A stretch of 55,328 bases of DNA from Oscillospiraceae bacterium. Lineage in GTDB: Bacteria > Bacillota > Clostridia > Oscillospirales > Ruminococcaceae. A model generated the notes under the pieces. The model did not search any database. It was not told the DNA's origin and saw only the letters and a list, made by a program, of their open reading frames with translations. Within the stretch, counting starts at the first letter, position 1. Each line of letters begins with the position of its first letter. The stretch spans positions 1-55,328 of the forward strand of contig JAGAZJ010000030.1 in assembly GCA_018110925.1 (NCBI GenBank), written 5' to 3'. The position numbers and the translations under genes were made by a program. Below, piece after piece: positions 29,560 through 52,111 of the stretch.

Positions 29560-29560
29560 T

Positions 29561-36633: not shown

Positions 36634-36651
36634 AAGGCGTATGACCTTCGG

Positions 36652-37140
36652 TCATACAAGTATAAACGACATTATAAGAGAGAGCACCGCCGCCAGAACA
36701 GGAAATCCGATGAGGGTAAACAGCCATTTGCCAATGAGTGTCTTGCCGTAGATATAGGGCTGCAGGTCCTGTGTGCCCTCTATTATCCACGCCTTGGTCT
36801 TGCCCACCCAGTACCAGTCGATGAATATCCTGTCAAACAACCCCATCATCAAAAGTATGGTACATATCTGAATAAAGCCGTCGGTAAATCCAACTGTGCC
36901 GTTTATCCCATAGACTGCGACAAGGGGAAAGACGATCAGGGGTATTATACTGTAAAGCCGAAACAATTTTAAGCCCCTGTCTATCTTTTCCTGTGTGGTG
37001 AGCCCATTTGCGATGACTCTCTCCTTCACTTCCTTCTCATAAAAAAACACCATATTGACAGGACTGTTTGCTATGCCGACCACACAGGGGATAAGCAGCA
37101 GAAAGCAGGCAACGAGCCCTTCGATAATAACTGTTCCCAT
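36652..37140 (-). CDS. Four-helix membrane protein, unknown function
   Basis: 162 residues with four predicted membrane helices: ~4-26, ~65-83, ~88-108 and ~137-160. A cytoplasmic charged loop (EKEVKERVIANGLTTQEKI) follows helix one. I recognise no family. Its start overlaps the TetR stop by one base (TAATG), so it is the likely target of that regulator and may be an exporter-like or stress-response membrane protein. Confidence 0.75.
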   Translation of the reverse strand: MGTVIIEGLVACFLLLIPCVVGIANSPVNMVFFYEKEVKERVIANGLTTQEKIDRGLKLFRLYSIIPLIVFPLVAVYGINGTVGFTDGFIQICTILLMMGLFDRIFIDWYWVGKTKAWIIEGTQDLQPYIYGKTLIGKWLFTLIGFPVLAAVLSLIMSFILV

Positions 37141-37865: not shown

Positions 37866-37894
37866 TTGACACATTCCTGTATATTTGATATAAT
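37866..37894 (+). promoter_or_regulatory. Consensus promoter of the Hsp70/AAA+/GTPase operon
   Basis: TTGACA (37866-37871), 17-base spacer, TATAAT (37889-37894): an exact match to the sigma-A consensus. No operator-like repeat is obvious beside it. A CIRCE-type heat-shock element is absent. Confidence 0.88.
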
Positions 37895-37931
37895 ATAGGA
37901 TGTAAAAATATATGTACCCGAGGATAACAAA

Positions 37932-39434
37932 ATGAGAGTAGGCATCGACCTTGGCACCACAAACACAGTGGTGAGCTATATAGACGAAAACGGCATATGG
38001 AACAGGCTGAGTTTCTCAAACGGCAGCAGTGAGGACAGGTACTTCCTGCCTTCAAGAGTCGCCGTAAAGGACGGCATGGTCATCGTCGGCAGACCCGCCG
38101 CAGAGATGCTCTTTACATCGCCCGCAGACGTGGTGTGCGATGCAAAAGCCAATATGCCCGAACCCGATAAGGAATACTACATAGGCGGTCTGACCATGAC
38201 CGCAGAGGAAATATCGGCACATATACTCAAAGAGGTATACAGCGAGCTTGAACGTCAGTTCCCCGAGGAGCGCACATTCAACGCATTCGTGACCGTTCCC
38301 ACAGGCTTTATGACAGAAGCAAGACTGGCAACAAAGCAGGCTCTGAGAGATGCAGGGTTTGAAACTGACGAGAACTGTCTTACCGATGAGCCCATAGCGG
38401 CAGCGGTGGCATACGGCACACGCCTTGACGGTGACAAGCTGGTGCTCGTGGTGGACATTGGCGGCGGAACATTCGACCTGTCGCTCATGAAAACAAGCAT
38501 CGTTGGTGCTTCCACGGGGGCAGGCAGGCTTGAGCCCGTGGGTCACGGCAGGGATATGCATCTGGGCGGAAATGATGTGGACGACATACTCGTAAAGGCT
38601 ATGTCGGACAGTTTTGTAAGAGCAGGCGGCATCCCCCTCGACCATCCGCAGGGAACGCAGTTCCGTGATATGCAGATAGCCTCCGCCGGACAGCGTCTGC
38701 GTTCGCTGACAATAGACATAAAAAAACAGCTCTACTCCGCTCCCGACCGTTCTGCTTATGCGTATATAAGAGATCTTTACGGCAAGGCTGACCTTGATTT
38801 CACCATATCTCCCGATGAATATATGTCGCTCATGGCAGACATAAACAAGAGATATGAGCGGTGTCTCGGCAATATATTCGTGGGTACGGGGTATTCGCCA
38901 AAGGATGTTGACCATGTGATAGTGGTAGGCGGTATGGCTCATGAGATATGTCTGAGACGGATACTCATGCGTATGTTCGGCGAGAACAGGCTCATAGTCC
39001 CCGAAGATGCCATGTATCTTGTTTCAAAGGGTGCGGCAATATGCAACAGCGATCTGAAGCTGGCGGTGGAGAACCGTGCATACACCTCGATAGGACTTTT
39101 GAAAGACAATGGCAGAGCAGTGGAAAACATCATCAAAGAGGGCTGTACCGTAAAGACCGGTGAGATATTCACCGCTGAGCTGTCCCCTGCCGAGCCGGAT
39201 GCTACTGCCGTCCGCATACAGATAGTGGAGTATACGGGTGAGTTCTCTCCCGAAAGATACACTGTCATACTATCCGGGGACATACCCATAGCGGAACGGG
39301 GCTTCACACTGTTCAAGAGACCTGTAAGACTCATGCTGGAAGCGGCTTTCAGCGAGGACAAGATACTTGACCTGACCGTAAAGCAGAAAGGCAGGACAGA
39401 CAGGCTCGATGTCAGGCTCGGAGGTAACAAATGA
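37932..39434 (+). CDS. Hsp70-family chaperone, short form (operon gene 1)
   Basis: 500 residues. Intact actin-like ATPase: phosphate-1 VGIDLGTTNTVVSYI (3-17), LTDEPIAAAVAYG, phosphate-2 VVDIGGGTFDLSL (173-185), LGGNDVDD (211-218), adenosine loop VVGGMAHEI (331-339). About 130 residues of beta-type substrate domain follow and there is no helical lid, so it is shorter than DnaK (~600) and not the housekeeping chaperone. The nucleotide site appears complete, so ATPase activity is expected. GAGGA precedes ATG 37932. It overlaps gene 2 by four bases (ATGA). Confidence 0.9.
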   Translation: MRVGIDLGTTNTVVSYIDENGIWNRLSFSNGSSEDRYFLPSRVAVKDGMVIVGRPAAEMLFTSPADVVCDAKANMPEPDKEYYIGGLTMTAEEISAHILKEVYSELERQFPEERTFNAFVTVPTGFMTEARLATKQALRDAGFETDENCLTDEPIAAAVAYGTRLDGDKLVLVVDIGGGTFDLSLMKTSIVGASTGAGRLEPVGHGRDMHLGGNDVDDILVKAMSDSFVRAGGIPLDHPQGTQFRDMQIASAGQRLRSLTIDIKKQLYSAPDRSAYAYIRDLYGKADLDFTISPDEYMSLMADINKRYERCLGNIFVGTGYSPKDVDHVIVVGGMAHEICLRRILMRMFGENRLIVPEDAMYLVSKGAAICNSDLKLAVENRAYTSIGLLKDNGRAVENIIKEGCTVKTGEIFTAELSPAEPDATAVRIQIVEYTGEFSPERYTVILSGDIPIAERGFTLFKRPVRLMLEAAFSEDKILDLTVKQKGRTDRLDVRLGGNK

Positions 39435-41359
39435 CTCTGAAAGAATGGCTCGGTATACGGGCTTTTGATATAAACGAGGGCGACACCGCAGATGTGTTCG
39501 CACAGCTTTTGGCTTATCTTGACAAGAGTGGTGCTGTCTTTGCAGACCCTGCGGATATTTCGATAGACGACGGTGAGCTTGTTTTCAGACGGTCATACGG
39601 ATTTGATGAGAACTACCGTCCGATAAAGGCAGAGGACGCTCCTTGCGACGCTGTCTTTGCCGCAGGGATAATGCTTTATCACAAGCTGAGCGGCGAACTG
39701 CCCGACATGGCGAATACAGCTCTGCTGCTTCTGGGAGCAAGGTCTGATAACAGTGTTAGCCTCTGCTCATGCCCCTCGACCTCTGCCGACGGGATCATAA
39801 AAGCGATGACACGCATTTTGCCCGAAAACAGGATCAGCGCATATCAGGCGCTCGATATGCTGGCGCAATACCGCTCAAAGGCAAGGATAGACTACACCGA
39901 GGAGGAAACAGGCACAGTGCTGTTCTCTGAGGAGATACCGCTTGACAGCGCTGTGACGGTATATGTGCCGACAAAAAAGGAAACAGACACAGCGGAGATA
40001 TTTCCCGGCTGTGAGAAGATAGAGATACCGTACCGCAGGGTAATAAAAAGCTACATATGCCCTGTAAGTCTCACCGAAAGCGCCCCGTGTGAGCATAGGG
40101 AAAGACACACGGAGGGCAGGATATTCGCATTTGATGCAGGCTCTCATCTGAGGGCGGCGCTTTTTGACACGGACGGTACTTTGTCCGACATAGCCGATGT
40201 ACCTCTGCATGGTGGGGAGGACATATCCTGTCTGTCACAGAGGATATTATCCGAAAACGGATATGACGCCGCCAAGGACAGGATCGCCGCTACCGACCGC
40301 ACAGCACTTCGGGCGGATGCAACAGTTCCCTTCGGGAGTGCGCTGGGAGTATATCAGACAGAGCGGCCATCTCTCTTTGCCTGTCTCGGAAGCGAAGCAC
40401 ACATATGTGCATACGGCATTGAGGAAAGCTGTGTCACCGTCCCCCTCGGCAAAAAGATGTCGGAGATAATGACAAAGGATATGCTCTCTACCCTCAGGAT
40501 ATCCTATCATGTTGACCTGTCGGACGAGGTGCTCCACAGGGATGCGCTGGATAAGATACGCATGGCGGCGGATGATATGATAAAGAAGCTGTCATTCTCG
40601 CCGTCTGCCGAAAATTCGGCCGAAATAATGTATAACGGTGAAATGAGGCATTTTGACTTTGCCTATGACAGATACCGCTTTGAGAATATGGTGAGGGATA
40701 TCATCACCGACCTTATCAGCGCCGTTGACGAAGCTCTCAACACCGCAAAAACGAGCCGTGAGGAGCTGAGGGCGACAGCCGTGAGCGGCGGTGCGGCCTG
40801 TATGCCCTGTCTTAGAGCTGTTTTTGAGACGGAAAACGTTGAAACGGTTTATATCCGCCGTCATACGGCGGCACGGGGCTGTGCGGTCCGTGCCGATATG
40901 CCGACATCTGTGAATGATGCTGTCGGCTTTGACATAGGCGTACTCAGCATACCTATAAACAGCAGTATGCCCGTATTCAGCACTCTGATAAAGGCAGGCA
41001 CTCCGAAATCGGATTGCAGGTTCACATATTCCTCAGAGGGGCTCAGACCCGAGGAAAAGGACGGCAGAAAGCAGCTGATACTGAAAATATACAAGCGTAA
41101 AAAGGGCATGGAGCACGTCAAGAGCCCCTATGACCCCGAAGGAAGTGCGATTGCCTATTTAGGTCGTGTTACCGCAGATATACCGAACGGCATGGATGAT
41201 GACGACAGGATAGTTTTCACGGTCATGACCGACGGGGTAAATTTATCGGCATCAGCCGAGGCGCACCGCCGAAAGGGAACTGTCGGAAGGCTCCTTGGCA
41301 GGATAACGGGTGCAGACGAATGGGAAAAGCCGCAGGAGATAAGGACGGAAGTGCGATGA
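39431..41359 (+). CDS. Degenerate Hsp70-like protein with possible kinase-C-lobe-like N-terminus (operon gene 2)
   Basis: 642 residues. Residues ~60-148 (CDAVFAAGIMLYHKLSGELP ... RILPENRISAYQALDML) resemble the C-lobe of a Ser/Thr kinase, with no N-lobe or catalytic loop. From ~230 an actin-like ATPase is recognisable but changed: phosphate-1 reads FAFDAGSHLRAALFDTDG and the adenosine loop AVSGGAACMPCLRAVF. A beta-rich end (VGFDIGVLSIPINSSMPVF...) matches an Hsp70 substrate domain start. It is probably a regulatory or scaffold partner of the Hsp70 upstream, to which it is translationally coupled. The kinase-like call is tentative. Confidence 0.72.
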   Translation: MTLKEWLGIRAFDINEGDTADVFAQLLAYLDKSGAVFADPADISIDDGELVFRRSYGFDENYRPIKAEDAPCDAVFAAGIMLYHKLSGELPDMANTALLLLGARSDNSVSLCSCPSTSADGIIKAMTRILPENRISAYQALDMLAQYRSKARIDYTEEETGTVLFSEEIPLDSAVTVYVPTKKETDTAEIFPGCEKIEIPYRRVIKSYICPVSLTESAPCEHRERHTEGRIFAFDAGSHLRAALFDTDGTLSDIADVPLHGGEDISCLSQRILSENGYDAAKDRIAATDRTALRADATVPFGSALGVYQTERPSLFACLGSEAHICAYGIEESCVTVPLGKKMSEIMTKDMLSTLRISYHVDLSDEVLHRDALDKIRMAADDMIKKLSFSPSAENSAEIMYNGEMRHFDFAYDRYRFENMVRDIITDLISAVDEALNTAKTSREELRATAVSGGAACMPCLRAVFETENVETVYIRRHTAARGCAVRADMPTSVNDAVGFDIGVLSIPINSSMPVFSTLIKAGTPKSDCRFTYSSEGLRPEEKDGRKQLILKIYKRKKGMEHVKSPYDPEGSAIAYLGRVTADIPNGMDDDDRIVFTVMTDGVNLSASAEAHRRKGTVGRLLGRITGADEWEKPQEIRTEVR

Positions 41360-41940
41360 CCGATATCAGGATATCATGGTACACTCTCACAGAGGATCTT
41401 GGCCCGGGAAAGCGGTTCGCGCTGTGGGTGCAGGGGTGCAAAAGAAACTGCAAGGGCTGCATAGCCCCCTCGCTTCGGGATATGGACGGCGGCGAGGTCA
41501 TGAAGATATCAGACCTGGCGAAAAGTATCATATCATCCGGGGCGGACCTGACTATCAGCGGCGGAGAGCCGTATCTTCAATCGGAGGCGCTCTGTGTACT
41601 GATAGACACTGTACGCACATCAAGACCGCAGACAGGTGTGATATGCTACACGGGCAACACCTATGAGGATATATCATCCGACCCGCTGACGAGCCGTGTG
41701 GATCTGCTCATAGACGGTGAATACATCGAGGAACTGGACGACGGCAGACCGATGAGAGGTTCATCAAATCAACGGCTCATTTTTCTCACAGACAGATATG
41801 ACACAAAGGATCTGCCTGCAAACAGACAGAACAGGTTCATATTCACGGAGAAGGGCTTCAGAATGACGGGGATACCGTCCGATGGTGCTAAGGCTCTGAT
41901 AGATATGATGTCAAACGGAGATGCATATGAAAATAAATGA
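41356..41940 (+). CDS. Radical SAM protein, NrdG-activase-like (operon gene 3)
   Basis: 194 residues. The 4Fe-4S site is Cys28-x3-Cys32-x2-Cys35 in VQGCKRNCKGCIAPS, followed by the SAM-binding glycine motif LTISGGEPYLQ and a short barrel. Size and pattern match small activating enzymes (NrdG, PflA-like) that make glycyl radicals, but no glycyl-radical enzyme is nearby. Its target may be another operon product. The start overlaps the previous stop by four bases; the next gene overlaps its end by 14 bases. Confidence 0.85.
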   Translation: MTDIRISWYTLTEDLGPGKRFALWVQGCKRNCKGCIAPSLRDMDGGEVMKISDLAKSIISSGADLTISGGEPYLQSEALCVLIDTVRTSRPQTGVICYTGNTYEDISSDPLTSRVDLLIDGEYIEELDDGRPMRGSSNQRLIFLTDRYDTKDLPANRQNRFIFTEKGFRMTGIPSDGAKALIDMMSNGDAYENK

Positions 41941-42514
41941 AGTCTTTATACTGACAGGCTGGGCGGACTGCGCAGACAGCACGGAATTCACACTTAACAC
42001 GCCCGACGGCACAGTGATGATAAACAACGACGGTCAGACCGATGCAGACGGCATGATAATAATAGCAAACCAGTCAGACGGTACTCTCTTTCTCGGTCAG
42101 ACCTCAGAACCGGTCGACCTGGTGCTGAACATAAAGTCACTGATGGGCAGTCTGCCTTTTCTGGAATGGAGCGTTGCCGATGCCCAGGCAGCATTCAGGG
42201 GTGAATATGACTGCAAGCGTCTGAGCGGAGACAAAGTGATCTTCACCGCAGTATCCGACGGGTGGAGCATATCCGTAACAGACGATGAGAAAGAAATAAA
42301 GCACGAAAGTCGTTATGAGTTTTCGCCTGACGACATAGACGGTAATATAATCAGCGATCTGAAAATGCTCTCATACTACGGAAGCACATCCGAAGTCAAC
42401 AGGGCAAAACAGCTTCTTAACTCCCGTGCGACAGTGAACGAAGCCGAAAGGATGATCGCTGAGCTGATTAAGCGTTCACATGACGATCTTACAAAATACC
42501 GCACGGAGATATAA
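41927..42514 (+). CDS. Unknown operon protein (gene 4, 195 aa)
   Basis: Soluble, acidic protein. The N-terminal half is beta-rich (ILTGWADCADSTEFTLNTPD, GTVMINNDGQTDADGMIIIA); the C-terminal ~50 residues are helical (EVNRAKQLLNSRATVNEAERMI). ATG 41927 is preferred over 41921 because GGAG lies six bases before it. I recognise no family. Tight overlap with the radical SAM gene suggests joint function. Confidence 0.72.
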   Translation: MKINEVFILTGWADCADSTEFTLNTPDGTVMINNDGQTDADGMIIIANQSDGTLFLGQTSEPVDLVLNIKSLMGSLPFLEWSVADAQAAFRGEYDCKRLSGDKVIFTAVSDGWSISVTDDEKEIKHESRYEFSPDDIDGNIISDLKMLSYYGSTSEVNRAKQLLNSRATVNEAERMIAELIKRSHDDLTKYRTEI

Positions 42515-42533
42515 AAACCAACCGGGAGGGCAT

Positions 42534-43907
42534 ATGGCCACAGATGTTTCCGTAATGCGCCTGAGACAAAGTGAGATAAACAAAAGGATAGAGCTGCTTC
42601 AGGCACAGCTAAAAAACGAAAGAGCAGCTTACACTGCCGAGAGCACAAGGCGTCTTAAAGACCTGACAAGGGGTATAACGGAGCGCATAGAGGCTCACGA
42701 CAGTCAGACAGACAGCGCATACCGCAAGGCTCTGGAACGGCATACCTCAGAGACGGAAAAGGCATTGCAGGAAAAGCTGTCCGCACTCAGAACGGAATAT
42801 GACAGATTAAGCTCCGAAATGACCGAACAGCTCGCCGCAGAGCAGAAGGAAAGAGAAGAACTTCTGCTGATGCAGGAGAAGTTTGAGGAAGCATACAGGT
42901 CACGCCTTGAATTTGCAAAGGGACAGGCTCTGGAGGTGCAGTCGAGATTTACAAAAAAGCTGACCGAGGTAATATCGGATGTGCCGCTGGAATGGTTTCT
43001 GCCCGGGCATCTTGACCTTTACCGCAGACGAGCCGACGAGATAGACAGGTGGATAAGGAACGGACTTTATGAAAGTGCGGCAGGCATAGGCGACGATCTG
43101 CTGATGCAGCTGAGCTTTGACACATTGGAGACCGAGGAACGGTTCGGTAAATGGTCACACTGGCATGAGCTTCTCAAAGCGGTCATCAAAGAGGAAGAAC
43201 AGATGTTCACGGCGGCTCACAGACTGCCCGAGGATATGCCGCTGTTCGGCGCATATCTGAAAATACAGGATCTGCGGCTGTCTGACGAGATACTCGACAA
43301 ATACACAGACGGCGGATATTCCGCAATGCACAGGGAATATGATATGACCGCCCGTATCTTTGAGCAGGGCATTCCCGACACGGAAGAAGATATAAGGCAT
43401 TATATGATAGAAAACCCGGAAAAGTCTGATAAGGCTGACGACCTGATGATGTATGAGATGATACAGGCGGCTGTAGACAGACAGAAAGCGGAGAGAAAAC
43501 TCATAAGCACCATGCACAGCCGTATGAGGGCATGGAACGAACGTTTGGAGATATATAAGGATGTCCGCTCCGCACTGGCGGAGGCAGGATGCAGATGCAG
43601 GCTGTCCGACAGCGGAGACACACATATCATCACATTTTCCGATGATATGGATGTTCACGGGTTTGAACTCATACTTGTCCCCGTGCTCCGCAGACAGGAT
43701 GAACAATGGATAAACCTCGTATCGTGCTATGTGCCCGATGGGATAGGCAAGGAAAGGTATGATGCGGTGAGGAGCGCTCTTGCACAGGTGATAACAGCAA
43801 GAGGGATAGATATAGACTACCGCAGAACAGACGAGCAGGATATGCAGGAGAAGATACACACCGTATGCAATGACAAGATAATGCTCGTCAACGGCAGACT
43901 CAACTGA
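42534..43907 (+). CDS. Coiled-coil protein (operon gene 5)
   Basis: 457 residues. A long heptad-rich coiled coil covers about residues 5-145 (EINKRIELLQAQLKNERAAY, EKALQEKLSALRTEYDRLSS). A helical middle domain and a C-terminal mixed domain (ITFSDDMDVHGFELILVPVL) follow. No enzyme motif seen. GGGAGGG precedes ATG 42534. It could be an adaptor or structural arm. The gene ends two bases before repeat copy 4. Confidence 0.75.
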   Translation: MATDVSVMRLRQSEINKRIELLQAQLKNERAAYTAESTRRLKDLTRGITERIEAHDSQTDSAYRKALERHTSETEKALQEKLSALRTEYDRLSSEMTEQLAAEQKEREELLLMQEKFEEAYRSRLEFAKGQALEVQSRFTKKLTEVISDVPLEWFLPGHLDLYRRRADEIDRWIRNGLYESAAGIGDDLLMQLSFDTLETEERFGKWSHWHELLKAVIKEEEQMFTAAHRLPEDMPLFGAYLKIQDLRLSDEILDKYTDGGYSAMHREYDMTARIFEQGIPDTEEDIRHYMIENPEKSDKADDLMMYEMIQAAVDRQKAERKLISTMHSRMRAWNERLEIYKDVRSALAEAGCRCRLSDSGDTHIITFSDDMDVHGFELILVPVLRRQDEQWINLVSCYVPDGIGKERYDAVRSALAQVITARGIDIDYRRTDEQDMQEKIHTVCNDKIMLVNGRLN

Positions 43908-43910
43908 TAA

Positions 43911-44032
43911 TACTAATTTCTGACCGATGCAATTATCTTCTGACGAGGATAGACAAGAAACAAGCCGTAAATGCTTGAATATAAGGGATTTGAGACTTGG
44001 ATATTGTCTATACATCAAGGAAGAATTAGTGT
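43911..44032 (+). repeat. Interspersed palindromic repeat, copy 4 (forward, with 20-bp insertion)
   Basis: Matches copy 3 but carries about 20 extra bases (AATTATCTTCTGACGAGGA region, 43930-43949) after GATG, which look like a partial duplication of the outer arm. It lies between two operon genes in the only sizeable gap (156 bases) of the eleven-gene run. Confidence 0.87.
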
Positions 44033-44063
44033 AATGCGACAAAACATACAGAGAGGTGGACTT

Positions 44064-45503
44064 ATGAGCTATACAGGTGAGATAGAAACTGTGCCATTGG
44101 TGGCAGAGCTTGCTTTCGGGGTATTGTCCTTTACAGTGGGAAATGTCGGCAGAGCCGTTTTCGGCGTGGCGACCGCCCCTGCCCGCATACCCGATGCTAT
44201 AACAAGCGCAAGGCTTCATGGCGTGAACGAACAACTTGACAGTGCCATGACCAATATTTTTCATTTTGACGAGAAAGTAAGCGCCGAGCTTGCCTCCGCC
44301 CGTGCGGATATAGACAGGCAATACTCCGAGAGCCTGTCGCAGATACAGAAAAGACTTGAAAGCAGCGGTGACACCGATATATTCATCGCTGAATGCTCTG
44401 CGGCGGCAGAAAAGCTGTGCAATGACATAGAGGCGGCGCAGAAGGAATTTGATGAGAAATACATATCCGCCATAAACACCGAAATGAAGAAATGCACCGC
44501 AGAGACCGCCATACTCAGAAGAAACGCCGAAGATATCATCGCCCGCGCGGAAAATGATGAGAAGAAAAAAGAAGCGGCGGCAGGATATGCCGAAAAGATG
44601 ATAGCATCGTTGAGATCCGCCCTTGAAGTCCTTGACGCAAGGGACAGCAAAAAGGCGGCAGAAGCGGTAAGGCTGTGCAGTGAACAGCTTGACAAAGCCG
44701 AACAGCGCCTTGCTTCGGGTATGAGCGAAGCCGCTCTGATAGATGTGTATTCTGCTGAGGATGCCTTCTATCTGCGATTGCAGGACATATTGACTGCCGA
44801 GGCAACGAACAGACAGAGGTATATCAATGCCAAAACAGCCCTCACACAGCTCAGAGAGGCATATGACGCCGCAAAGCACGGTGAGATGACCTTTGAGAGC
44901 ACTGCTTCGGGCACTCCCATCACTAAAACAACGGATGATATGCCGCTTTATTTCAGGGGCGACTATGAGCGTATCGGCGGCGAGATAGCCGTTCTTGAAA
45001 AAATGCTTGAAGGCTCATACACCGACATAGGCAGGGAAGAACTTGCCGACATAAGACGCAGAACGGCAAGGATCGGTGCAGATTTCACCGCCTGCACACG
45101 GACCGCATATGAGCGTATGCACAATGAACTTCTGAGAAAAGAGACCGCCAAGGTGCTTGCCGCACGCTACCGTTCAAAGGGATACAGCCTTATACCGCTG
45201 ACGGCAAAGGACAAGGAGTATTCCCCCCTTGACAGGATAGTTCTGCGCTTTCAGAAAAACGGCACGGACGAAAGGCTGTATCTGTTCCTCGATGCCAACG
45301 AGAACGGCGGCCATGTGAATATGAAAATAGATATAGAAGACCATACCGACTATGAGGGCGGTTTCGATGAGGTAGAGCTTGCCCGTGAAAAAGAACGCAA
45401 AGCCAACTGTGAAGCCATAAAAAGCTCGGCCGTGGGCAAAGCGATAGGTCTTAAACAGCGGTGCAAGAACCCGGGCGTGATCGACACATACAGACCCGAA
45501 TGA
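44064..45503 (+). CDS. Coiled-coil protein (operon gene 6)
   Basis: 479 residues. After a short hydrophobic start (LVAELAFGVLSFTVGNVGRA) comes a long helical/coiled-coil region (~50-370) with repeated EKLCNDIEAAQKEFDEKY-type heptads, then a C-terminal beta domain (IVLRFQKNGTDERLYLFLDANE). The layout parallels gene 5: coiled coil, then a small beta domain reading out a similar pattern. ATG 44064 has GAGAGGTGG upstream; the frame stays open back through repeat copy 4, but that part is repeat translation. Confidence 0.75.
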   Translation: MSYTGEIETVPLVAELAFGVLSFTVGNVGRAVFGVATAPARIPDAITSARLHGVNEQLDSAMTNIFHFDEKVSAELASARADIDRQYSESLSQIQKRLESSGDTDIFIAECSAAAEKLCNDIEAAQKEFDEKYISAINTEMKKCTAETAILRRNAEDIIARAENDEKKKEAAAGYAEKMIASLRSALEVLDARDSKKAAEAVRLCSEQLDKAEQRLASGMSEAALIDVYSAEDAFYLRLQDILTAEATNRQRYINAKTALTQLREAYDAAKHGEMTFESTASGTPITKTTDDMPLYFRGDYERIGGEIAVLEKMLEGSYTDIGREELADIRRRTARIGADFTACTRTAYERMHNELLRKETAKVLAARYRSKGYSLIPLTAKDKEYSPLDRIVLRFQKNGTDERLYLFLDANENGGHVNMKIDIEDHTDYEGGFDEVELAREKERKANCEAIKSSAVGKAIGLKQRCKNPGVIDTYRPE

Positions 45504-45515
45504 CGGAGGTAACCG

Positions 45516-48260
45516 ATGTCCTCGATATTCAACAACACTTCCACCAGAATATTCTGTATCTCAGGTGAGCTGAGCGACATATTCTGTCTGCCCAACGGGT
45601 GGATAGTGAATTTTGACGAGCTTCTGAGCATAAGGCTGAAAGAAATGGGCTTTTCGGGAGTGGTATTCTGCTCAACACAGCGGAATATGGTGTACTCCAC
45701 AGATGCCGCCGGAGTACGTGCAACGGATATACTCACAGGCAGAAAAAAGCCTTCAGCACAGCCAGCAAAGCCGACAGAACCGGAACCTGTATCAGATGAT
45801 TACAGCTGGCTTGACGATGATGCACCCTCAGAACCTGCTCCCTCTCCCAAGAAGAAAGAGGAGAAGCTGAAATACACAAGAAATATCGCCAAGGATCAGC
45901 TGTCTGTCGCAACGGACAGATATATGCGTGATACAGACGAGCCCAAGGCGATAGTGTTCACATCGCTTGAGGATCTGATTCGCCTTGCCTCGACAGACGA
46001 AGGCAGGCGGCTTCTTGAACGATTTGAAGAGTGGAAATCACTGCCGAATGAAAATAAGAACATATGCATACTTCTCTCAAAGACGCTCGACAGCTGCGGA
46101 CTTCAGAATATGCTCCACGACAACCGTGTAGCGGTGCTTGAATCCCTATTTCTCAGAAAGAACGAATTCAACCGCAATGCAAGTCTCTGCGTGGGAACGC
46201 CCCTCAGCGACGAGATAGAGAACCTGCTTGAATATCTGCGCATAGCAGGTCACACCTATACCGTGAACGGTGTGGAAAAGCATTCATATCTGCGCTTTCA
46301 CAGAGATCAATACAAGCGCATAATAAGGACGCTCAGCTTTTGCAGCCGTGACAGCGGCTTTACTCAGCTGAAATCCATGAAAGAGATCATAGAACGGTAT
46401 ATGGAAAGCGCAGGCACAGAGGAAGTACCCATATCCCCCGAGACAATAGACCACCTTTATCCCGATTCTGCGGCAGGCTCAAAGGACGACACGGACCCCA
46501 TGCAGATACTGCGAGAAAAGCGGGGATGGGAACCTGCCTACAATGTTATAAACAGTTTCATTACCGGCTGGCGTATGCTCTATCCCGAGGGCGCAGACAA
46601 CGATGACAGGGGCACCGAGCTGACTGTTGACAGATTTGAACCTGTCTCGGACAGCAGGAACATAGGCAGTGTGCCGAATTTCGTTCTTGAAGGGCCGCCC
46701 GGCGTGGGCAAGACAGCCATTGCGAACCTTATCGGACGCATACTCCAGAGAGAGGGTATAATCCGCTCCGGTCACACCGTTATAGGCTCCCGTGACAAGC
46801 TGGTCGGTGAATATGTAGGCTCTACCGCCATCCGCACCGCTTCGCTCATAGAGGAGGCACAGGAGGGCGTTCTGCTGGTGGATGAGGTGTACTCCATAGC
46901 TGAGCAGAACGGGCAGAACATATCCTACTGCGATGAGGTCTTCAACACCATAGTTGCGGCGATGACCAACAAGAACTATCATTTCTGCGTTATATTCGCA
47001 GGCTATGCAGACCGCATGAACGAGGTCTGGAAGATGAACGAGGGGCTGTTCTCACGTTTCGGTGCATCAAATGTGATAAGCCTTAATGAATATGAGCCTC
47101 CACTGCTGCAAAATATCTTTGAGTCACAGTTTGGGACTCCGGAGGGCATAAGCGGCACAAGAACAGTGCTGTCCGACGATGTGAGAAATGATCTGCCCGT
47201 ATTCTTTGAGAACTACTTTGCAGACCGTGACAGAAAGAATTTCGGCAATGCGAGAGATGTAAACAACCTTGTCAGTGATGTGAAGCGTGCCGCTTCATAC
47301 CGCAGTACCTGTAACGGACTGACAGGCGGTGTCATAACAGTCGAGCGCTGTGACTTTGAGGACAGGGCGGAACTTTTCAGAAAGAGAGGTTTTTCCGCCG
47401 AGGACATATATTCAAAGCTCCATGACTATGTGGGAATGGACTTTCTTGAAGATATGTTCAACGACCAGCTGGCGCTCCGTGTGGAGTGTATGGAAAAGGG
47501 ACTCCCTTATCCCGGTCCTTCTCACATGATATGGGCAGGAAGCCCTGGTACGGGCAAATCCACCGCCGCACAGCTCACCGCAGAATTGTATCACAGTCTT
47601 GGCATACTCGGCTCGTCCAAACCTATATATGTCGATGCATCAGAGCTCACAAGCGTGTATGTGAGTGGAAGTGCAGGCAAGATGAACGAAAAGATAGACG
47701 AAGCGTGCCAGAAAAACGCCGTGCTTATAATCGAGGAAGCATATCAGCTGCTTGAAAAGGGCGGAGAAGATGCCATACACGCCATGCTCAACCGCATGGA
47801 GACAGACAGGGCGAATTTCAATCTGATACTCATACTCTATAAGGACAAGGTGCAGGAATTCCTGAACAGAAATCCCGGACTGGCATCAAGGCTGAAAGTA
47901 TATGAATTCCCTGATTACGACGCAAAACAGCTCTATGAGATATTCCTGCTCATGTGCAGAAAATCCCGTGATGAGGTATCAGAGGGATGCAAGGCGGCGG
48001 CGAGGGAGTATATCGACAGGCTGTATCTGTCCGGTCGGGCATCCGAAGGCAACGCAAGGCTTATACGTCAGCTGACAGATACCATGAAACAGCGCAGATA
48101 TGAGCGCATACTGAGAATGATCGCCGCAGAGCGCTTCGGAGAGGATACGGCAGAAAACCGCAAGAAAGCCTCCGCCGCCCGTGCTATGGGAACGGTGAAA
48201 GTGCCGGACGGAGCATATGTCTTTACAGAGAGCGATCTGCCCGAATACGGTGAAGCATGA
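45516..48260 (+). CDS. Double AAA+ ATPase, CbxX/CfxQ-SpoVK-like (operon gene 7)
   Basis: 914 residues. An N-terminal ~350-residue region includes a Pro/Lys-rich linker (~80-115) and helical parts. AAA domain 1 has Walker A EGPPGVGKT at ~391 and Walker B GVLLVDEVYS at ~451. AAA domain 2 has Walker A GSPGTGKST at ~675 and Walker B VLIIEEAYQL at ~736, with Glu in place of the first Asp. Relatives (CbxX, SpoVK, EccA) remodel protein complexes as hexamers. It is probably the motor of the system, working with the Hsp70 pair. GGAGGT precedes ATG 45516. Overlaps the GNAT gene by four bases. Confidence 0.88.
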   Translation: MSSIFNNTSTRIFCISGELSDIFCLPNGWIVNFDELLSIRLKEMGFSGVVFCSTQRNMVYSTDAAGVRATDILTGRKKPSAQPAKPTEPEPVSDDYSWLDDDAPSEPAPSPKKKEEKLKYTRNIAKDQLSVATDRYMRDTDEPKAIVFTSLEDLIRLASTDEGRRLLERFEEWKSLPNENKNICILLSKTLDSCGLQNMLHDNRVAVLESLFLRKNEFNRNASLCVGTPLSDEIENLLEYLRIAGHTYTVNGVEKHSYLRFHRDQYKRIIRTLSFCSRDSGFTQLKSMKEIIERYMESAGTEEVPISPETIDHLYPDSAAGSKDDTDPMQILREKRGWEPAYNVINSFITGWRMLYPEGADNDDRGTELTVDRFEPVSDSRNIGSVPNFVLEGPPGVGKTAIANLIGRILQREGIIRSGHTVIGSRDKLVGEYVGSTAIRTASLIEEAQEGVLLVDEVYSIAEQNGQNISYCDEVFNTIVAAMTNKNYHFCVIFAGYADRMNEVWKMNEGLFSRFGASNVISLNEYEPPLLQNIFESQFGTPEGISGTRTVLSDDVRNDLPVFFENYFADRDRKNFGNARDVNNLVSDVKRAASYRSTCNGLTGGVITVERCDFEDRAELFRKRGFSAEDIYSKLHDYVGMDFLEDMFNDQLALRVECMEKGLPYPGPSHMIWAGSPGTGKSTAAQLTAELYHSLGILGSSKPIYVDASELTSVYVSGSAGKMNEKIDEACQKNAVLIIEEAYQLLEKGGEDAIHAMLNRMETDRANFNLILILYKDKVQEFLNRNPGLASRLKVYEFPDYDAKQLYEIFLLMCRKSRDEVSEGCKAAAREYIDRLYLSGRASEGNARLIRQLTDTMKQRRYERILRMIAAERFGEDTAENRKKASAARAMGTVKVPDGAYVFTESDLPEYGEA

Positions 48261-48700
48261 TGATATACACTATGAGCTATGGTCATCCCCTGTGGGATGA
48301 GACTGCCGACTTTGCGGAAAACTGCTCCTGGCGTGCCGGCAAAGTACTGGCACATCAGATGAGAGACAACCGTTTCTCTGACAACGAACGGGTATTCGCC
48401 GCAACAGAAGACGGCAGGATCATCGGGTTCTGTACTTTTTCGGAAAAGGACTCTCTTCCCGACGATGCTCCTTATACGCCGTTTATCGGTTTTATGTTTG
48501 TGGACGAGCTGGCAAGGGGCAGACGCATATCTCAGAAGATGATAGGAGAAGCAGAAGCATTCGCAAAACACATGGGCTTTGATGCTATATACATAATCAG
48601 CGAAGAACAGGGCTTGTACGAAAAGTACGGCTTTGTGAAAACAGATGACTGTAAAACTGTATACGGCACAGTCGAACAGCTTTTGATGAAAAAGCTGTGA
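48257..48700 (+). CDS. GNAT acetyltransferase embedded in the operon (gene 8)
   Basis: 147 residues. GNAT core with IGFMFVDELARGRRISQKMIG as the acetyl-CoA region and EEQGLYEKYGFVKTD at the end. Its start overlaps the AAA+ stop by four bases (ATGA), so it is translationally coupled to the ATPase and not a chance neighbour. It could acetylate an operon protein or its target; specificity unknown. Confidence 0.85.
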   Translation: MMIYTMSYGHPLWDETADFAENCSWRAGKVLAHQMRDNRFSDNERVFAATEDGRIIGFCTFSEKDSLPDDAPYTPFIGFMFVDELARGRRISQKMIGEAEAFAKHMGFDAIYIISEEQGLYEKYGFVKTDDCKTVYGTVEQLLMKKL

Positions 48701-48723
48701 TAAGCATTTCATAAGGAGATCTG

Positions 48724-50052
48724 ATGATGAAACACGAGAGTGATCTTTGTGAATTCTATATATCACTTGTCGGCGGCTCGGCATCGGGCAAGACATCGTT
48801 CATATCGGGAGTGGTACAGCTTCTGGTGAGTCAGGGGCTGTCTGTGGGCAAGGCAGGCGATGAAAAGTATATCTATTTCAGACCCGTTGCAGTAGGCAGC
48901 GGAGAGATAGATGCTCGCCCTGAACCTGTCAAAACAGCCGCACAAGCCATACCGCAGATATCGAGCCCATTCATGTCACAGAGTGCTGGCGGCGGAGGCG
49001 GTGCATTCTCCGCAGTGGGAGGGGCACCCTCACCGCTGAAAGACAAGGCACAGGTGCCCTCACTCAATGTGACCGACAAAGAGGGTGCCGACAGGCTTGG
49101 CACCGCACAGCAGGTGGAAAGACTGATACGTCAATGGCAGATATTATCGGCAGAGAACGCAGGCACCAAAAGGGCAGGCTTCCATGCCCCCACGGACAAG
49201 GTGAGCTTTGCCGAGATGACCTTTGAAGTCATCATCAACGACGTTCCCAGAGCAAAGCTCAGGATCACAGACTACGGCGGTGAGTTTATAGACGACCCCG
49301 ACGGCACTGTACAGAACGTGTACTCAAAACTCATAAACCACATCTACAACAGCGACGGAGCTATCATCCTCGCCAATGTGCGTGCTATGGAGGAACACAT
49401 CGACGACACATTTGATGCAAACTCCAGTATGTTCAGAGCGGTCGGCGTGAACCGCTCCATATCGGCAGACAGCATAAACTCATTGTTCCGCAGTATGGGA
49501 GAAAAGAAGGACTTCACTATCGTCGCCGCACTCACACAGACGGATAATCCGTTCATAGACAAGCGTCTCAGCGAGAACAATTTCAGGCGGCCGCTGACCG
49601 AGCTGAAAAAGAACATTCTACGCCCCACATTCCAGTGTGCGGCAATGCGAAAATGGAGCAGCGGTCTTCTGCCTGTGACGGCTGTGGGCACAAAGCGTGA
49701 CGGTTCGGCAAATGTGGATAAGCTCAATAATCTGATAGAGGATGCCGTAATATCCCCCCACGGGATAGACACAGCAGTGCTTTTCTGCCTGTACAACGGC
49801 GCTCTCGCCCGAAAAAAGGAACTCAGCAGGGAGCGTGATTCGTTATGCGGTATGTTTGCAAGACCGAAGCTGTTTGCGGACAAGGCTGAGAGGGAAAAAT
49901 TCTCGGAGCTTTGCTCACAGATAGACGATCTTTCAGCGATAGCAGACGCACTTCATTCGGACCCACAGCTTTTTGAGGAGGTATTTGAGGGAGAATGTGC
50001 CCTTGAAAAGACCACCGTCGTGGGCGATGTCAAGGTAAGAAAACAACGGTAA
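48724..50052 (+). CDS. P-loop GTPase-like protein (operon gene 9)
   Basis: 442 residues. Walker A GGSASGKT (17-24) lies right after the first strand. A Gly/Ala/Pro-rich segment (~75-105) separates switch regions. ITDYGGE at ~181 is placed like the DxxG of TRAFAC GTPases, and VAALTQTDNP may be the base-recognition TKxD equivalent. A helical C-terminus follows. I would place it among small divergent GTPases, not dynamins. AAGGAG lies five bases before ATG 48724. GTP rather than ATP use is inferred. Confidence 0.75.
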   Translation: MMKHESDLCEFYISLVGGSASGKTSFISGVVQLLVSQGLSVGKAGDEKYIYFRPVAVGSGEIDARPEPVKTAAQAIPQISSPFMSQSAGGGGGAFSAVGGAPSPLKDKAQVPSLNVTDKEGADRLGTAQQVERLIRQWQILSAENAGTKRAGFHAPTDKVSFAEMTFEVIINDVPRAKLRITDYGGEFIDDPDGTVQNVYSKLINHIYNSDGAIILANVRAMEEHIDDTFDANSSMFRAVGVNRSISADSINSLFRSMGEKKDFTIVAALTQTDNPFIDKRLSENNFRRPLTELKKNILRPTFQCAAMRKWSSGLLPVTAVGTKRDGSANVDKLNNLIEDAVISPHGIDTAVLFCLYNGALARKKELSRERDSLCGMFARPKLFADKAEREKFSELCSQIDDLSAIADALHSDPQLFEEVFEGECALEKTTVVGDVKVRKQR

Positions 50053-50063
50053 CGGAGCAAAAA

Positions 50064-51041
50064 ATGGATATTGATGTTATCATATACGGCAGAGGTCAGG
50101 AAAGGCTTGAGGGCTATCACACCTTTACCGCACCGACGTACTGGACGGATGAGATGCTCACGGCGATGAACTCATTCTATCATATGTGGTCAAACGGCGA
50201 CCTGTCGGATGCATACCCCGATAAATTCACAGGTGCCGACCCATGGGGCAGAACATATATTTTCATAGCCATGCCGCCCCCGTACTGTTGTGCGCTTCTG
50301 CGCACAACAAGGGTAATGGGAGATGACGGCAGCTGGCTGAGAGAAGTGCGCAATCAGGAGATATGGTCTCTTGAGGGCTTCTGCGCTCCCTTTGAGCGCA
50401 AGGAGGAATTCTTTGCACAGATACCCTCGATGATACTCTGGCTTGAAAAAAACAAGGGCTCTTTATACAAAAGATTCTCTGACGAGGAAATAGGCGGAGT
50501 TCTCACGATACCGGGCGACCTTATGATGAATCCTTATCATGATACGCCCATGCCCGACAGCTTCGGTGATATACTTTCCGACAGCAAAGCAGCATGGGAT
50601 ATGCTGGTAAAAAAGATACGCTGTTCAAACGGCATATTCCACTTTCTCTTCGGACCGTTCGCAGAGTGCTTCTACAATCCGCTTCGCTTTGACTACAATA
50701 TATCGGAGCTTTTCCCCACGGAATGCAGAGATGAAGATATACACGACCCGTTTGATGATATGACGCTCATCAGCCGCAAAACGAGGATAGGCAACACCAA
50801 GACCCATGTACTGCGCATGATAACCGACACGGGCGAGATGCCGAGACGATGCTGGCAGCTGTATTCTCCGTCGAGCAATGACCCCGATGATGTGCTGACG
50901 AGCGAGCCGCCGTTCCCCATACCCGAGAATGGCATTGATGTGCGAAGGATGCTGTCTGAGACTGAAACCATTAAGCTCTTTACCTTTAAAATGCAGTGGG
51001 ATACCGTCAACGGGTCGTTCACATTCACAGAGGAGGTGTGA
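50064..51041 (+). CDS. Unknown operon protein (gene 10, 325 aa)
   Basis: Soluble protein starting MDIDVIIYGRGQERLEGYH, rich in aromatic residues and Pro. The YGRGQERL start and position right after a GTPase loosely recall GTPase-associated N-terminal domains of NTPase conflict systems, but I cannot establish homology. GGAG precedes ATG 50064; the stop sits at the start of gene 11. Confidence 0.68.
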   Translation: MDIDVIIYGRGQERLEGYHTFTAPTYWTDEMLTAMNSFYHMWSNGDLSDAYPDKFTGADPWGRTYIFIAMPPPYCCALLRTTRVMGDDGSWLREVRNQEIWSLEGFCAPFERKEEFFAQIPSMILWLEKNKGSLYKRFSDEEIGGVLTIPGDLMMNPYHDTPMPDSFGDILSDSKAAWDMLVKKIRCSNGIFHFLFGPFAECFYNPLRFDYNISELFPTECRDEDIHDPFDDMTLISRKTRIGNTKTHVLRMITDTGEMPRRCWQLYSPSSNDPDDVLTSEPPFPIPENGIDVRRMLSETETIKLFTFKMQWDTVNGSFTFTEEV

Positions 51042-51043
51042 TG

Positions 51044-52111
51044 ATGGACGTTTTCAACATCACACTCAGAGCCCTGCACATTTTCGGCGGCGATAAAAAC
51101 GGGGCTGTGCCCTATCCTGATGATATAGGTACATGGGAGAGCCTTTCATCGGACACAAGGGGCATACTTGACGATATACTCCTCTTTCTTGAAAAGGAGA
51201 TATCCCGTTCGGACACAAAGGAATTTGTCATAGACAATCTGCGTGAAAGCGTTTTTGGTCTGGTAGTACCGGAAGGGTATATCATGCTCACCGGAGGACT
51301 TGACAAAGCAATGCGCCACGCCGTTCTGGGCGGCTTTCTGATACCCGGCTGTGGAGACCTGCGTACCGCATGGCATTTTGCACGCTGGCAGCTTCTGCTG
51401 ATAAGCTCTACATCGTGGAACAGGACAGGCGATGTAAGCATATCGCTCACTGATATAAACACCCTTGCTGCCGCCGCTCTTGAAAAGATAAACGCCCTCG
51501 ACGAGCACAAGCTGCCCGGAAGCCTGTATATGGACAGGCTCCGGGAGATAGGCAAGGATATGATGGAATCGGCGATGCCATTCAGCTTTGCAATGACGAA
51601 TTTCAACAAGAACCATCTTATGCTCGACCTGAGAAAAGGCTATCAGTCCGCCGAGACCATCAGCACGGGCACGGGCAGTATCCCTATCGCACAGATAGAC
51701 CTCGACAAATACGATGTTATGATGTATGAGAAGTATCCCTTTGAAGATATACGGCTCAATGTGCTTGACAGTGAGACATTCACGGAACAGAAAGTGCTGG
51801 AGATAAAAAAGCTCGGCACTCCCGAGGCTGTCCGTGATGCCAAGGCTCTGAAAAAAAACGCCCCGCAGATGTATCCTGCGGGACGAGTGTGGTGCTTTAT
51901 ATTCACCGATCAGGGAAATACATTTTCCTATCCTCTGGCACCGGAAGCACACCACGGTCTGTACTCCACGGGGGTATCGGACTTTGACCTTATCTACAAG
52001 AGCTTCCGTGATGCGTTCGGTGCGGCAAACAAATATTTCGGAAAGCTGAGCACTCGTCCGATGAACAGCCGCGGTGAAAAGAAAGGATTTCTCGGCTTTT
52101 TCGGAAGATGA
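51044..52111 (+). CDS. Unknown operon protein (gene 11, 355 aa)
   Basis: Mostly helical, with one moderately hydrophobic stretch (RHAVLGGFLIPGCGDLR, ARWQLLLISSTSW). The C-terminus ends in a basic, aromatic tail (EKKGFLGFFGR). ATG 51044 is seven bases from AGGAGG; ATG 51041, overlapping the preceding stop, is the alternative. No family recognised. The stop codon abuts the recG stop on the other strand with no intergenic base, so no terminator separates them. Confidence 0.68.
   Translation: MDVFNITLRALHIFGGDKNGAVPYPDDIGTWESLSSDTRGILDDILLFLEKEISRSDTKEFVIDNLRESVFGLVVPEGYIMLTGGLDKAMRHAVLGGFLIPGCGDLRTAWHFARWQLLLISSTSWNRTGDVSISLTDINTLAAAALEKINALDEHKLPGSLYMDRLREIGKDMMESAMPFSFAMTNFNKNHLMLDLRKGYQSAETISTGTGSIPIAQIDLDKYDVMMYEKYPFEDIRLNVLDSETFTEQKVLEIKKLGTPEAVRDAKALKKNAPQMYPAGRVWCFIFTDQGNTFSYPLAPEAHHGLYSTGVSDFDLIYKSFRDAFGAANKYFGKLSTRPMNSRGEKKGFLGFFGR

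What the first reader, a model, noticed from the sequence alone, without database searches (positions are those of the whole stretch)
37866..52111. Eleven-gene Hsp70 / radical-SAM / AAA+ / GTPase operon that I do not recognise as a described system
One exact-consensus promoter is followed by eleven same-strand genes: Hsp70, degenerate Hsp70, radical SAM, orphan, two coiled-coil proteins, double AAA+, GNAT, P-loop GTPase and two orphans. Five junctions overlap by up to 14 bases and most others are under 25 bases, so the set is made together. Combining a lid-less chaperone pair, a CbxX-like motor, an acetyltransferase and a radical enzyme in one unit suggests an NTP-driven protein-remodelling or conflict machine. 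A WYL pair, regulators common at defence loci, lies just upstream. No nuclease or toxin is obvious, so the effector, if any, would be among the orphans. The gene content is read from sequence; the system-level claim is inference.
Basis: partly seen in the sequence, partly recalled or inferred. Interest (0 to 1): 0.9.

Follow-up and report, generated by a model that had tools for sequence, protein, structure and literature searches.

The report
GTPase-switched Hsp70/AAA+ remodelling machine
Ten of eleven neighbouring genes in a gut bacterium form a rare, recurring set that looks like a GTP-switched protein-handling machine with two chaperones, a pulling motor and a radical enzyme; it resembles, but does not match, a published class of predicted bacterial conflict systems, and what it acts on is unknown.

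Summary
The operon is real: a 12-of-12 consensus promoter and eleven same-strand genes with five overlapping junctions; one gap (156 bp, g5/g6) holds a dispersed repeat. Ten genes recur; the GNAT was seen only here. I found the set in 17 genomes or contigs (the window's family, or records titled Ruminococcus, Oscillospiraceae, Clostridia and the like), in two related types, plus one remote cluster. In two sister species the genes are scattered over three unlinked loci yet kept, and 3 of 3 searched type B genomes without the radical-SAM gene in the operon keep one elsewhere: the parts act as a unit. g9 is DO-GTPase2-like (over cut-off in one relative, below it here); five of eight type A loci have a degenerate second copy. 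g2 joins a kinase C-lobe remnant to a decaying Hsp70 whose ATPase domain is absent in type B. Predicted folds of g10 and g11 hint weakly at TagF/longin-type GTPase regulators. Closest in print: the HSP70 theme of DO-GTPase/GAP1-N2 systems (eLife 2020); GAP1 was tested and not found. Best reading: a GTP-gated Hsp70-AAA+ remodelling machine, perhaps for conflict or stress; no effector identified. New variant of a known kind.

The parts
37866..37894 (+). Consensus sigma-70-type promoter TTGACA-17-TATAAT with TG before the second hexamer
   Evidence: 12 of 12 matches; sequence
37932..39434 (+). g1: Hsp70-like ATPase (500 aa), motifs GIDLGT, DIGGG, IVVGG intact; too short for the alpha lid (inference from length)
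   Evidence: Pfam HSP70 1.1e-39; motifs; type A/B homology hhalign 100%
39431..41359 (+). g2: kinase C-lobe remnant + degenerate Hsp70 ATPase domain + substrate-domain-like C-terminus
   Evidence: HSP70 1.7e-12 over 341-524; alignment A6; kinase C-lobe shown on the type B partner P1
41356..41940 (+). g3: radical SAM protein, NrdG-like but in a separate clade
   Evidence: Fer4_12 4.7e-30; NrdG 88.5 bits, cut-off 126.1; tree
41927..42514 (+). g4: orphan, fastest-evolving part (26% to a sister species)
   Evidence: no family above cut-off; identities; present in G177 block L103
42534..43907 (+). g5: coiled-coil protein, distant kin of g6
   Evidence: hhalign Ag5/Bg5 99.4%; Ag5/Ag6 72.9%
44064..45503 (+). 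g6: coiled-coil protein
   Evidence: hhalign Ag6/Bg6 98.8%
45516..48260 (+). g7: N-terminal region of about 380 aa without a Pfam match + two CbxX/SpoVK-type AAA+ domains; most conserved part
   Evidence: TIGR02881 1.6e-69; N-region used for the survey; tree
48257..48700 (+). g8: GNAT acetyltransferase; extra seen only in the window, in the place of a zinc-ribbon/TM protein of relatives
   Evidence: not between g7 and g9 in relatives
48724..50052 (+). g9: GTPase-like P-loop protein related to DO-GTPase2 (GGSASGKT, DYGGE, ALTQTD)
50064..51041 (+). g10: orphan; predicted fold resembles TagF (weak)
   Evidence: alignments A4, A8; model pLDDT 77.3; Foldseek
51041..52111 (+). g11: orphan; low-confidence model starting beta-alpha-beta3-alpha
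   Evidence: A5, A9; model pLDDT 61.7; Foldseek without significant match
37140..37721 (-). Divergent TetR-family gene, candidate regulator (not shown)
   Evidence: TetR_N 7.4e-11; 56% identical TetR about 1.8 kb downstream of g11 in L109

Best explanation
It is a GTP-switched protein-remodelling machine, a variant of the GTPase-centred chaperone systems. Proposed working: the g9 GTPase (in many relatives with a degenerate twin and a zinc-ribbon membrane protein) is the switch; g10 and g11, perhaps longin/roadblock-like and encoded directly after it, load or discharge it and, with fast-evolving g4, hold the sensor role; coiled-coil g5 and g6 scaffold the complex; lid-less Hsp70 g1 and its partner g2 bind client protein through their substrate domains, g2 having lost its own ATPase and kept a kinase lobe as a docking surface; the double AAA+ ring g7 threads or extracts the client; the radical-SAM enzyme g3 modifies a component or client. 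Shown: the gene set, its recurrence, its retention as a unit after dispersal, the family assignments of g1, g2, g3, g7 and (weaker) g9. Inferred: every interaction and step. A conflict or stress-surveillance role is my preferred purpose (about 0.4); no effector is identified.
For: g1, g9, g5, g6 and g10 are homologous between the two types (hhalign 97.9-100%), g7 by blast and g2 by alignment. In G177 the set lies in three unlinked loci: g1-g6 (L103), g7-g9 (L026), g10-g11 (L102); in G976 likewise, with g1-g3 seen up to a contig end. In the genus g7 and g10 occur in the same 4 of 20 genomes. Trees of g7, g9 and g10 give window,(G975,(G177,G976)); that of g1, without G975, agrees. Linked and solo rSAM genes form one clade (100/100) apart from 12 other NrdG-type rows. 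DO-GTPase2 matches 10 of 12 g9 proteins at E<=1, best 1.7e-9, in L030 38.2 bits over the cut-off of 27. ORF281 looks like a second, degenerate copy of g9 (hhalign 86% one way, 36% the other). g10 model: the top three PDB hits are all TagF, prob 0.85-0.95. Uneven rates against G177: g7 70, g1 65, g3 59, g10 53%, but g4 26%, RecG 69%.
Against: No effector, nuclease, pore or peptidase was recognised. The window's g9 is below the DO-GTPase2 cut-off (19.5 of 27 bits), L025's shows no DO-GTPase2 match, and hhalign of g9 against four DO-GTPases of GAP1 loci gives 13-20%, no better than a P-loop-only pair at 22%. GAP1 is not detectable. TagF matches have TM-scores of 0.24-0.32 and E no better than 2.4e-3. 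The g11 model is poor and has no significant match; longin-type and PAS-type chains are about equally common in its list. g4 and g11 could not be joined to type B counterparts. Shared ancestry of the four genus members may explain their co-occurrence.
Confidence: 0.5

Rival explanations
1. Enzyme repair or activation: the radical-SAM enzyme activates a glycyl-radical or other radical enzyme and the Hsp70/CbxX-type machinery remodels it, as Rubisco activase CbbX or diol-dehydratase reactivase do (both recalled).
For: g3 is NrdG-like, with CX3CX2C in my reading of its sequence; g7 scores against CbbX at 7.5e-62; the rSAM gene is kept even when unlinked. In the window's own genome (69% complete) and in G976 no other NrdG over the cut-off was found, so g3 as the cell's only NrdG is not excluded there.
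Against: I noticed no glycyl-radical or other client enzyme in the operon or recurring beside it (no targeted search). In 6 of the 8 genomes searched an NrdG over the cut-off exists as a separate gene. Seven of nine type B operons lack the rSAM gene. Most parts evolve fast.
Confidence: 0.15
2. Assembly or regulation of an envelope structure or export apparatus, with the GTPase and a TagF-like protein controlling it as TagF controls type VI secretion (recalled).
For: TagF is the only notable fold match of g10; zinc-ribbon proteins accompany the system in 5 of 8 type A and 9 of 9 type B loci (one a fragment), with hydrophobic segments in the 9 of 9 that I profiled; EccA, a type VII secretion ATPase, scores on g7 at 2.5e-64.
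Against: No secretion or surface-structure family recurs among the 25 of 54 Pfam families shown for the flanks; the window has no zinc-ribbon gene in the operon; the low TM-scores allow no claim of TagF kinship.
Confidence: 0.15
3. A true anti-phage or anti-element defence system in which an orphan (g4, g10 or g11) is the sensor or effector. This overlaps with the best explanation and sharpens its purpose.
For: Patchy: 8 of 347 family genomes with the own one, 4 of 20 genus genomes; g4 and others evolve far faster than RecG; L033 carries Cas9/Cas1/Csn2 where L034 has the rest of the operon.
Against: PADLOC gives only short or shared-domain matches (ten of the eleven proteins scanned, g8 left out). 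One plasmid search (g10) and one phage search (g9) found nothing. I noticed no defence gene beside the dispersed copies by eye; these were not scanned.
Confidence: 0.25
4. Chance neighbours that only look like a unit.
For: A repeat element separates g5 and g6; g8 is not conserved.
Against: Same order in four uncut type A loci and the shared core in type B; retention after dispersal.
Confidence: 0.02

Closest known systems
DO-GTPase / GAP1-N2 systems, HSP70 theme (Kaur et al. 2020, PMC7159879; passages seen)
   Same: GTPase kind (DO-GTPase2), GTPases often in two copies, zinc ribbons and TM segments, an Hsp70 with a second Hsp70-like protein, a further gene directly after the GTPase
   Different: no GAP1, FNIII, GrpE or DnaJ recognised; adds a double CbxX-type AAA+, a radical-SAM enzyme, two coiled-coil proteins and a kinase-lobe/Hsp70 fusion; the published second protein keeps the HSP70 domain and lacks the peptide-binding one, here the partner keeps the substrate-like end and loses the ATPase; zinc-ribbon/TM proteins are separate genes
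CbxX/CbbX, SpoVK and EccA AAA+ proteins
   Same: g7 scores at 7.5e-62, 1.6e-69 and 2.5e-64
   Different: all far below the equivalog cut-offs (209.2 of 459.25, 233.9 of 422.95, 217.8 of 466.65 bits); an N-terminal region of about 380 aa without a Pfam match
NrdG anaerobic RNR activase
   Same: family resemblance, 88.5 bits
   Different: below cut-off (126.1) and outside the NrdG rows with full support; no nrdD among the operon's genes
TagF and longin/roadblock GTPase regulators
   Same: predicted fold of g10, hints for g11; position after a GTPase gene
   Different: no sequence match; low TM-scores; PAS-type chains are as common in the lists

Membership tests
DO-GTPase/GAP1 conflict systems | GTPase of the DO-GTPase family | tested here: inconclusive
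   Window g9 19.5 bits, cut-off 27; 10 of 12 g9 proteins match at E<=1, best 38.2 bits; glutamate after DxxG in the seven type A rows, not in the five type B rows; hhalign to four DO-GTPases 13-20%
DO-GTPase/GAP1 conflict systems | GAP1 protein (GAP1-N1 or -N2, -M, -C) | tested here: not met
   No GAP1 hit for 10 g10 proteins at E<=10, for window g10/g11 or two more g10 and one g11; hhalign of g10 and g11 with five GAP1-N2 proteins 0.0-0.5%
DO-GTPase/GAP1 conflict systems | GASH or FNIII third component | tested here: not met
   No such Pfam hit listed for the operon proteins scanned (lists capped at 25 for g7 and P2)
DO-GTPase/GAP1 conflict systems | variable effector | tested here: inconclusive
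   None recognised; g4, g10, g11 have no family
DO-GTPase/GAP1 conflict systems | paralogous second GTPase (38% of published systems) | tested here: inconclusive
   ORF281 in L027-L030 and L109 (5 of 8 type A), not beside g9 in the window, G177, G976
Hsp70 (DnaK) | ATPase domain with phosphate and adenosine motifs | tested here: met
   g1: Pfam 136.6 bits; GIDLGT, DIGGG, IVVGG
Hsp70 (DnaK) | full-length DnaK score, alpha lid | tested here: not met
   g1 500 aa, 130.5 bits against 822.55
Protein kinases | complete two-lobed catalytic domain | tested here: not met
   Only profile positions 167-258 of 263 match in L031 P1
NrdG | equivalog score and clade | tested here: not met
   88.5 of 126.1 bits; own clade 100/100
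TagF (type VI secretion) | sequence membership | tested here: not met
   No TagF hit in Pfam or PDB sequences; fold hits only
Known anti-phage systems (PADLOC-DB 2023) | matching core proteins | tested here: not met
   ten of eleven proteins: best 4.3e-9 (AAA stretch of g7) and 2.6e-6 (72-residue stretch of g1)

The most novel reading that the evidence does not exclude
A bacterial machine in which a TRAFAC-type GTPase pair is run by a longin/roadblock heterodimer (g10/g11), as Rag or Rab GTPases are in eukaryotes, to gate an Hsp70-AAA+ remodelling complex; its second Hsp70 is fused to a kinase lobe and can be followed from intact ATPase (L030) through decay (L029, L028, window) to absence (type B) while its substrate-like end is kept. 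(Odds lowered from 0.3 on rechecking: PAS-type chains are as common as longin-type ones in the g11 fold list.)
Probability: 0.25. Interest if true: 0.85.

Novelty: new variant of a known kind. Interest (0 to 1): 0.7.

Why it matters
If right, it joins three NTP engines (GTPase, Hsp70, AAA+) and a radical enzyme in one dedicated unit, gives a natural series of an Hsp70 partner losing its ATPase, and might offer a bacterial case of longin-type control of a GTPase besides MglA/MglB (recalled). The dispersed copies in sister species make the functional link testable without relying on gene order.

Tried and rejected
Searching named genomes with g9 alone found nothing; the g7 N-region was the useful probe. 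g10 or g11 as GAP1-N2: suggested to me by an N-terminal pattern, but profile comparison showed nothing. g7 N-region as a decayed AAA+: hhalign 0.2-0.4%, dropped. g4 as kin of the type B gene P2 or of FNIII: no signal. An empty site beside recG: in the nine recG loci compared no other window gene lay next to it, so no test was possible. A class search with the remote cluster's AAA+ found only the window, 1 of 291 genomes. Viral contigs: none. Plasmids with g10 and phages with g9: none. The viral fold library gave no useful match for g10. An early table missed g1 in L029 because an antisense ORF masked it; it is there. Paper search on TagF with longin/roadblock GTPases: listing only, none of the eight listed papers held the word TagF. 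Codon usage, dN/dS and expression were not studied.

Flank scan: 50 of the 63 proteins listed were used; the 13 left out are one antisense ORF over g1 (L029) and twelve that are short or start at or near a contig end. The flanks of the window, L031, L039 and of the dispersed loci L102-L105 were not scanned.
Full report
Observation. The eleven genes and the promoter are there as described. One search gives TTGACA-17-TATAAT with TG before the second hexamer at 37866-37894, 12 of 12 matches. One search lists starts, stops and junctions: five overlaps (4, 4, 14, 4 and 1 bases), gaps of 19, 12, 23 and 11, and one of 156 bases between g5 and g6. That gap holds a repeat of about 100 bases that also occurs near 12.6, 29.6 and 36.5 kb of the window. 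Several ORFs are longer than the likely genes; I moved the starts of g3, g4, g5, g6 and g11 to where homologues begin.

Families. g1 is Hsp70 with intact ATPase motifs and no room for a lid. g2 matches Hsp70 over residues 341-524 and ends in a part that aligns among its relatives and that I read as the beta substrate domain from recall. g3 is a radical-SAM protein near NrdG. g7 has two CbxX/SpoVK-type AAA+ domains after about 380 residues without a Pfam match. g9 hits DO-GTPase2 (8.6e-4) and DO-GTPase1 (0.002) below cut-off. g4, g10 and g11 match nothing useful. PADLOC finds only short or shared-domain matches (g8 not scanned).

Recurrence. The window lies in a 1.67-Mb genome of 34 contigs, 69% complete. 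With g9 alone, 3 of 197 family genomes matched, own included. With the g7 N-region, 8 of 347 family genomes matched, own included and one remote; 2 of 391 class genomes, own included, the other a 47-position stretch with four stops. A scan of named genomes with the six-row alignment A2 gave 15 loci, all titled Oscillospiraceae, Ruminococcus, Ruminiclostridium, Clostridiales or Clostridia, several from sheep, deer and goat gut. With the window and G975 (L109) this makes 17 genomes or contigs: eight of type A and nine of type B.

Type A (window, L027, L028, L029, L030, L109, G177, G976) has g1 g2 g3 g4 g5 g6 g7, usually a zinc-ribbon protein, g9, often a second P-loop-like ORF (ORF281), g10, g11. 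Four are uncut and contiguous: window, L028, L029, L030. L027 and L109 start inside the operon at a contig end. The zinc-ribbon protein and ORF281 occur in five of eight (L027-L030, L109). The window has the GNAT in the place of the former and no ORF281. Type B (L031-L039) has a zinc-ribbon protein, g1, P1, in two of nine a radical-SAM gene (L031, L032), P2, g5, g6, g7, g9, g10, often a further ORF, and a second zinc-ribbon protein. L031 and L039 are cut by contig ends; L033 stops after g7 and continues with Cas9, Cas1 and Csn2. The zinc-ribbon proteins profiled, four of type A and five of type B, have two to four hydrophobic segments each. An all-against-all hhalign of 24 profiles (21 of system genes or g7 parts, 3 of GAP1 loci; 276 pairs) joined the types for g1 (100%), g9 (99.7), g5 (99.4), g6 (98.8) and g10 (97.9); g7 joins them by blast. 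Not joined: g4 with P2 (0.2%), g11 with its type B counterpart (0.5%), the zinc-ribbon proteins (1.9%).

The parts act as a unit. Sister species G177 (97% complete) has g1-g6 on L103 (g6 cut by the contig end), g7-g9 on L026 and g10-g11 on L102, three different contigs with other genes beside them; G976 has g1-g3 up to a contig end on L105, g7-g9 on L025 and g10-g11 on L104. Trees of g7, g9 and g10 show window,(G975,(G177,G976)), with g1 (no G975) in agreement; the forks that hold the window are fully supported in g7 (100/100) and short of the star in g9 (87/99) and g10 (94/96), the g10 fork that joins G975 has 80/86, and g9 has long branches. So the operon, contiguous from g7 to g11 in G975 and whole in the window and in other genera, probably broke up in the line to G177 and G976, and its parts were kept. 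In the genus the g7 N-region was found in 3 of 20 and g10 in 4 of 20 genomes; the fourth, G975, has g7 cut at a contig start, so both occur in the same four. Shared descent weakens this as independent evidence. Three type B genomes without a radical-SAM gene in the operon (G096, G292, G241) have an unlinked one, 3 of 3 searched. A tree of 31 rows (25 different) puts all linked and solo copies, with that of the remote cluster, in one clade of 19 rows (100/100), apart from 12 other NrdG-type rows of the same genomes. In the window's genome and in G976, both 69% complete, no NrdG over the cut-off was found.

The Hsp70 partner. In type B, P1 keeps the two ends of g2 but has no Hsp70 ATPase domain (six P1 rows; P1 is 262-310 aa in all nine type B loci). 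Its N-terminal part matches only the C-lobe of protein kinases: Pfam Pkinase in 3 of 6 members (best 1.1e-4), for L031 at profile positions 167-258 of 263. A profile of the six gave 63 PDB sequences at E<=1; by my count 56 of the 60 listed are kinases or kinase-like by name, best 0.005, and 4 are not so named. In type A the ATPase motifs of g2 look intact in L030, altered in L029 and L028, and largely lost in the window, G177 and G976 (my reading of the sequences printed; the search pattern used there finds only some of them).

GTPase and its neighbours. Of 12 g9 proteins, the window's included, 10 match DO-GTPase2 at E<=1, best 1.7e-9. L030 is over the cut-off (38.2 of 27), L027 and L029 match the inner part at 24.8 and 23.3 bits, L028 and L109 are weaker, and L025 shows no DO-GTPase2 match. 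Against four DO-GTPases from GAP1 loci the hhalign probability is only 13-20%, not above a P-loop-only pair at 22%. ORF281 aligns with g9 over about 239 columns at 86% (36% in the other direction). g10 turned up only in genomes that have the system: 1 of 249 phylum genomes, the own one, and 4 of 20 in the genus. The AlphaFold2 model of g10 (12 sequences) has mean pLDDT 77.3 and pTM 0.69. Its three best PDB matches are all TagF (E 2.4e-3 to 4.9e-3, prob 0.85-0.95, TM 0.24-0.32, rmsd 8.5-11.9); the other 47 listed rows have prob 0.23 or less, among them an FLCN-FNIP2-Rag-Ragulator chain, a SEA-complex chain and a Roadblock-Longin protein, but also about nine PAS or LOV domains. The g11 model (5 sequences) is poor (61.7, 0.45). 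Its matches are not significant (best E 0.28, prob 0.20 at most). By my count 11 of the 50 listed rows are chains of KICSTOR/GATOR1/Rag, DENND1B-Rab35, Fuzzy-Inturned or CPLANE, SMCR8-C9orf72 complexes or a longin SNARE, several rows being the same complexes; about 12 others are PAS, LOV or phytochrome proteins, which share the strand-helix order (what these chains are is recalled from their titles). I read this as a hint that g10, and perhaps g11, belong to the longin/roadblock kind of GTPase regulators, not as a finding.

Rates. Window against G177: g7 70%, g1 65, g3 59, g10 53, g5 42, g2 41, g9 41, g11 37, g6 35 (over 226 columns, contig end), g4 26; RecG 69%. The motor and g1 evolve like RecG, most of the rest much faster, which fits recognition parts in a conflict but also loose constraint.

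What is known. My paper searches gave listings; PMC7159879 was seen in passages and PMC8195603 in passages. The only close description is the GTPase-centred class of Kaur et al. 2020 (PMC7159879). There DO-GTPases occur with GAP1, and about 14% of GAP1-N2 neighbourhoods have HSP70 and GrpE, a subset of them with a second protein that has only the HSP70 domain without its peptide-binding domain. The present system shares the GTPase kind and an Hsp70 pair, though here the partner loses the ATPase and keeps the other end. GAP1, a defining part, was tested and not found. I therefore call it a new variant of the kind, not a member of the GAP1 systems.

Limits. Function is inferred throughout. Most genomes are MAGs. 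Flanks: 50 of 63 listed proteins from 13 loci were scanned; the 25 of 46 PADLOC families shown are all Cas9, Cas1 or Csn2 types, one member each, so other defence genes among the unlisted 21 are not excluded.

Noticed in passing
window 12613-12709, 29559-29658, 36536-36652, 43938-44038: A dispersed repeat of about 100 bases, four places at 83-100% identity to the query copy, one of them inside the operon between g5 and g6.
   Followed up: partly
L033:13025-18863: CRISPR-Cas genes (Cas9, Cas1, Csn2) follow g7 directly, where L034 with a similar left flank has the rest of the operon.
   Followed up: partly
L024:10096-19999 and L052:1-9491: A third, remote cluster in genus g22: Hsp70-like protein, radical-SAM of the same clade, coiled-coil proteins, g7-like AAA+, and three zinc-ribbon proteins ending in GVRPALWLK (DUF6273-like by recall), without a GTPase that I noticed.
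   Followed up: partly
window 37140-37721 (-); L109:8217-8801 (-): A TetR gene with a promoter-like site of its own reads away from g1; a 56% identical TetR lies about 1.8 kb downstream of g11 in G975; no match in the other 14 sources compared.
   Followed up: partly
L106:8699-9761: The solo radical-SAM gene of G096 lies tail to tail with a small heat-shock-like protein; a gene at 445-2835 looks like a conjugation ATPase (both by sequence, recalled).
   Followed up: no
L102:3090-4721: A gene that looks like a serine recombinase (recalled) lies about 5 kb before the detached g10-g11 pair of G177.
   Followed up: no
L020:7400-8832: The g6 gene reads as two overlapping ORFs in G292, one ORF in its close relative L010.
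   Followed up: no
L010, L034, L035, L032 (type B): The C-terminal part of type B g10 matches the C-terminal part of the second zinc-ribbon protein (hhalign 97.3%).
   Followed up: no
L029:17640-20153: A dockerin-domain protein lies just after the operon, suggesting a cellulosome-bearing host.
   Followed up: no
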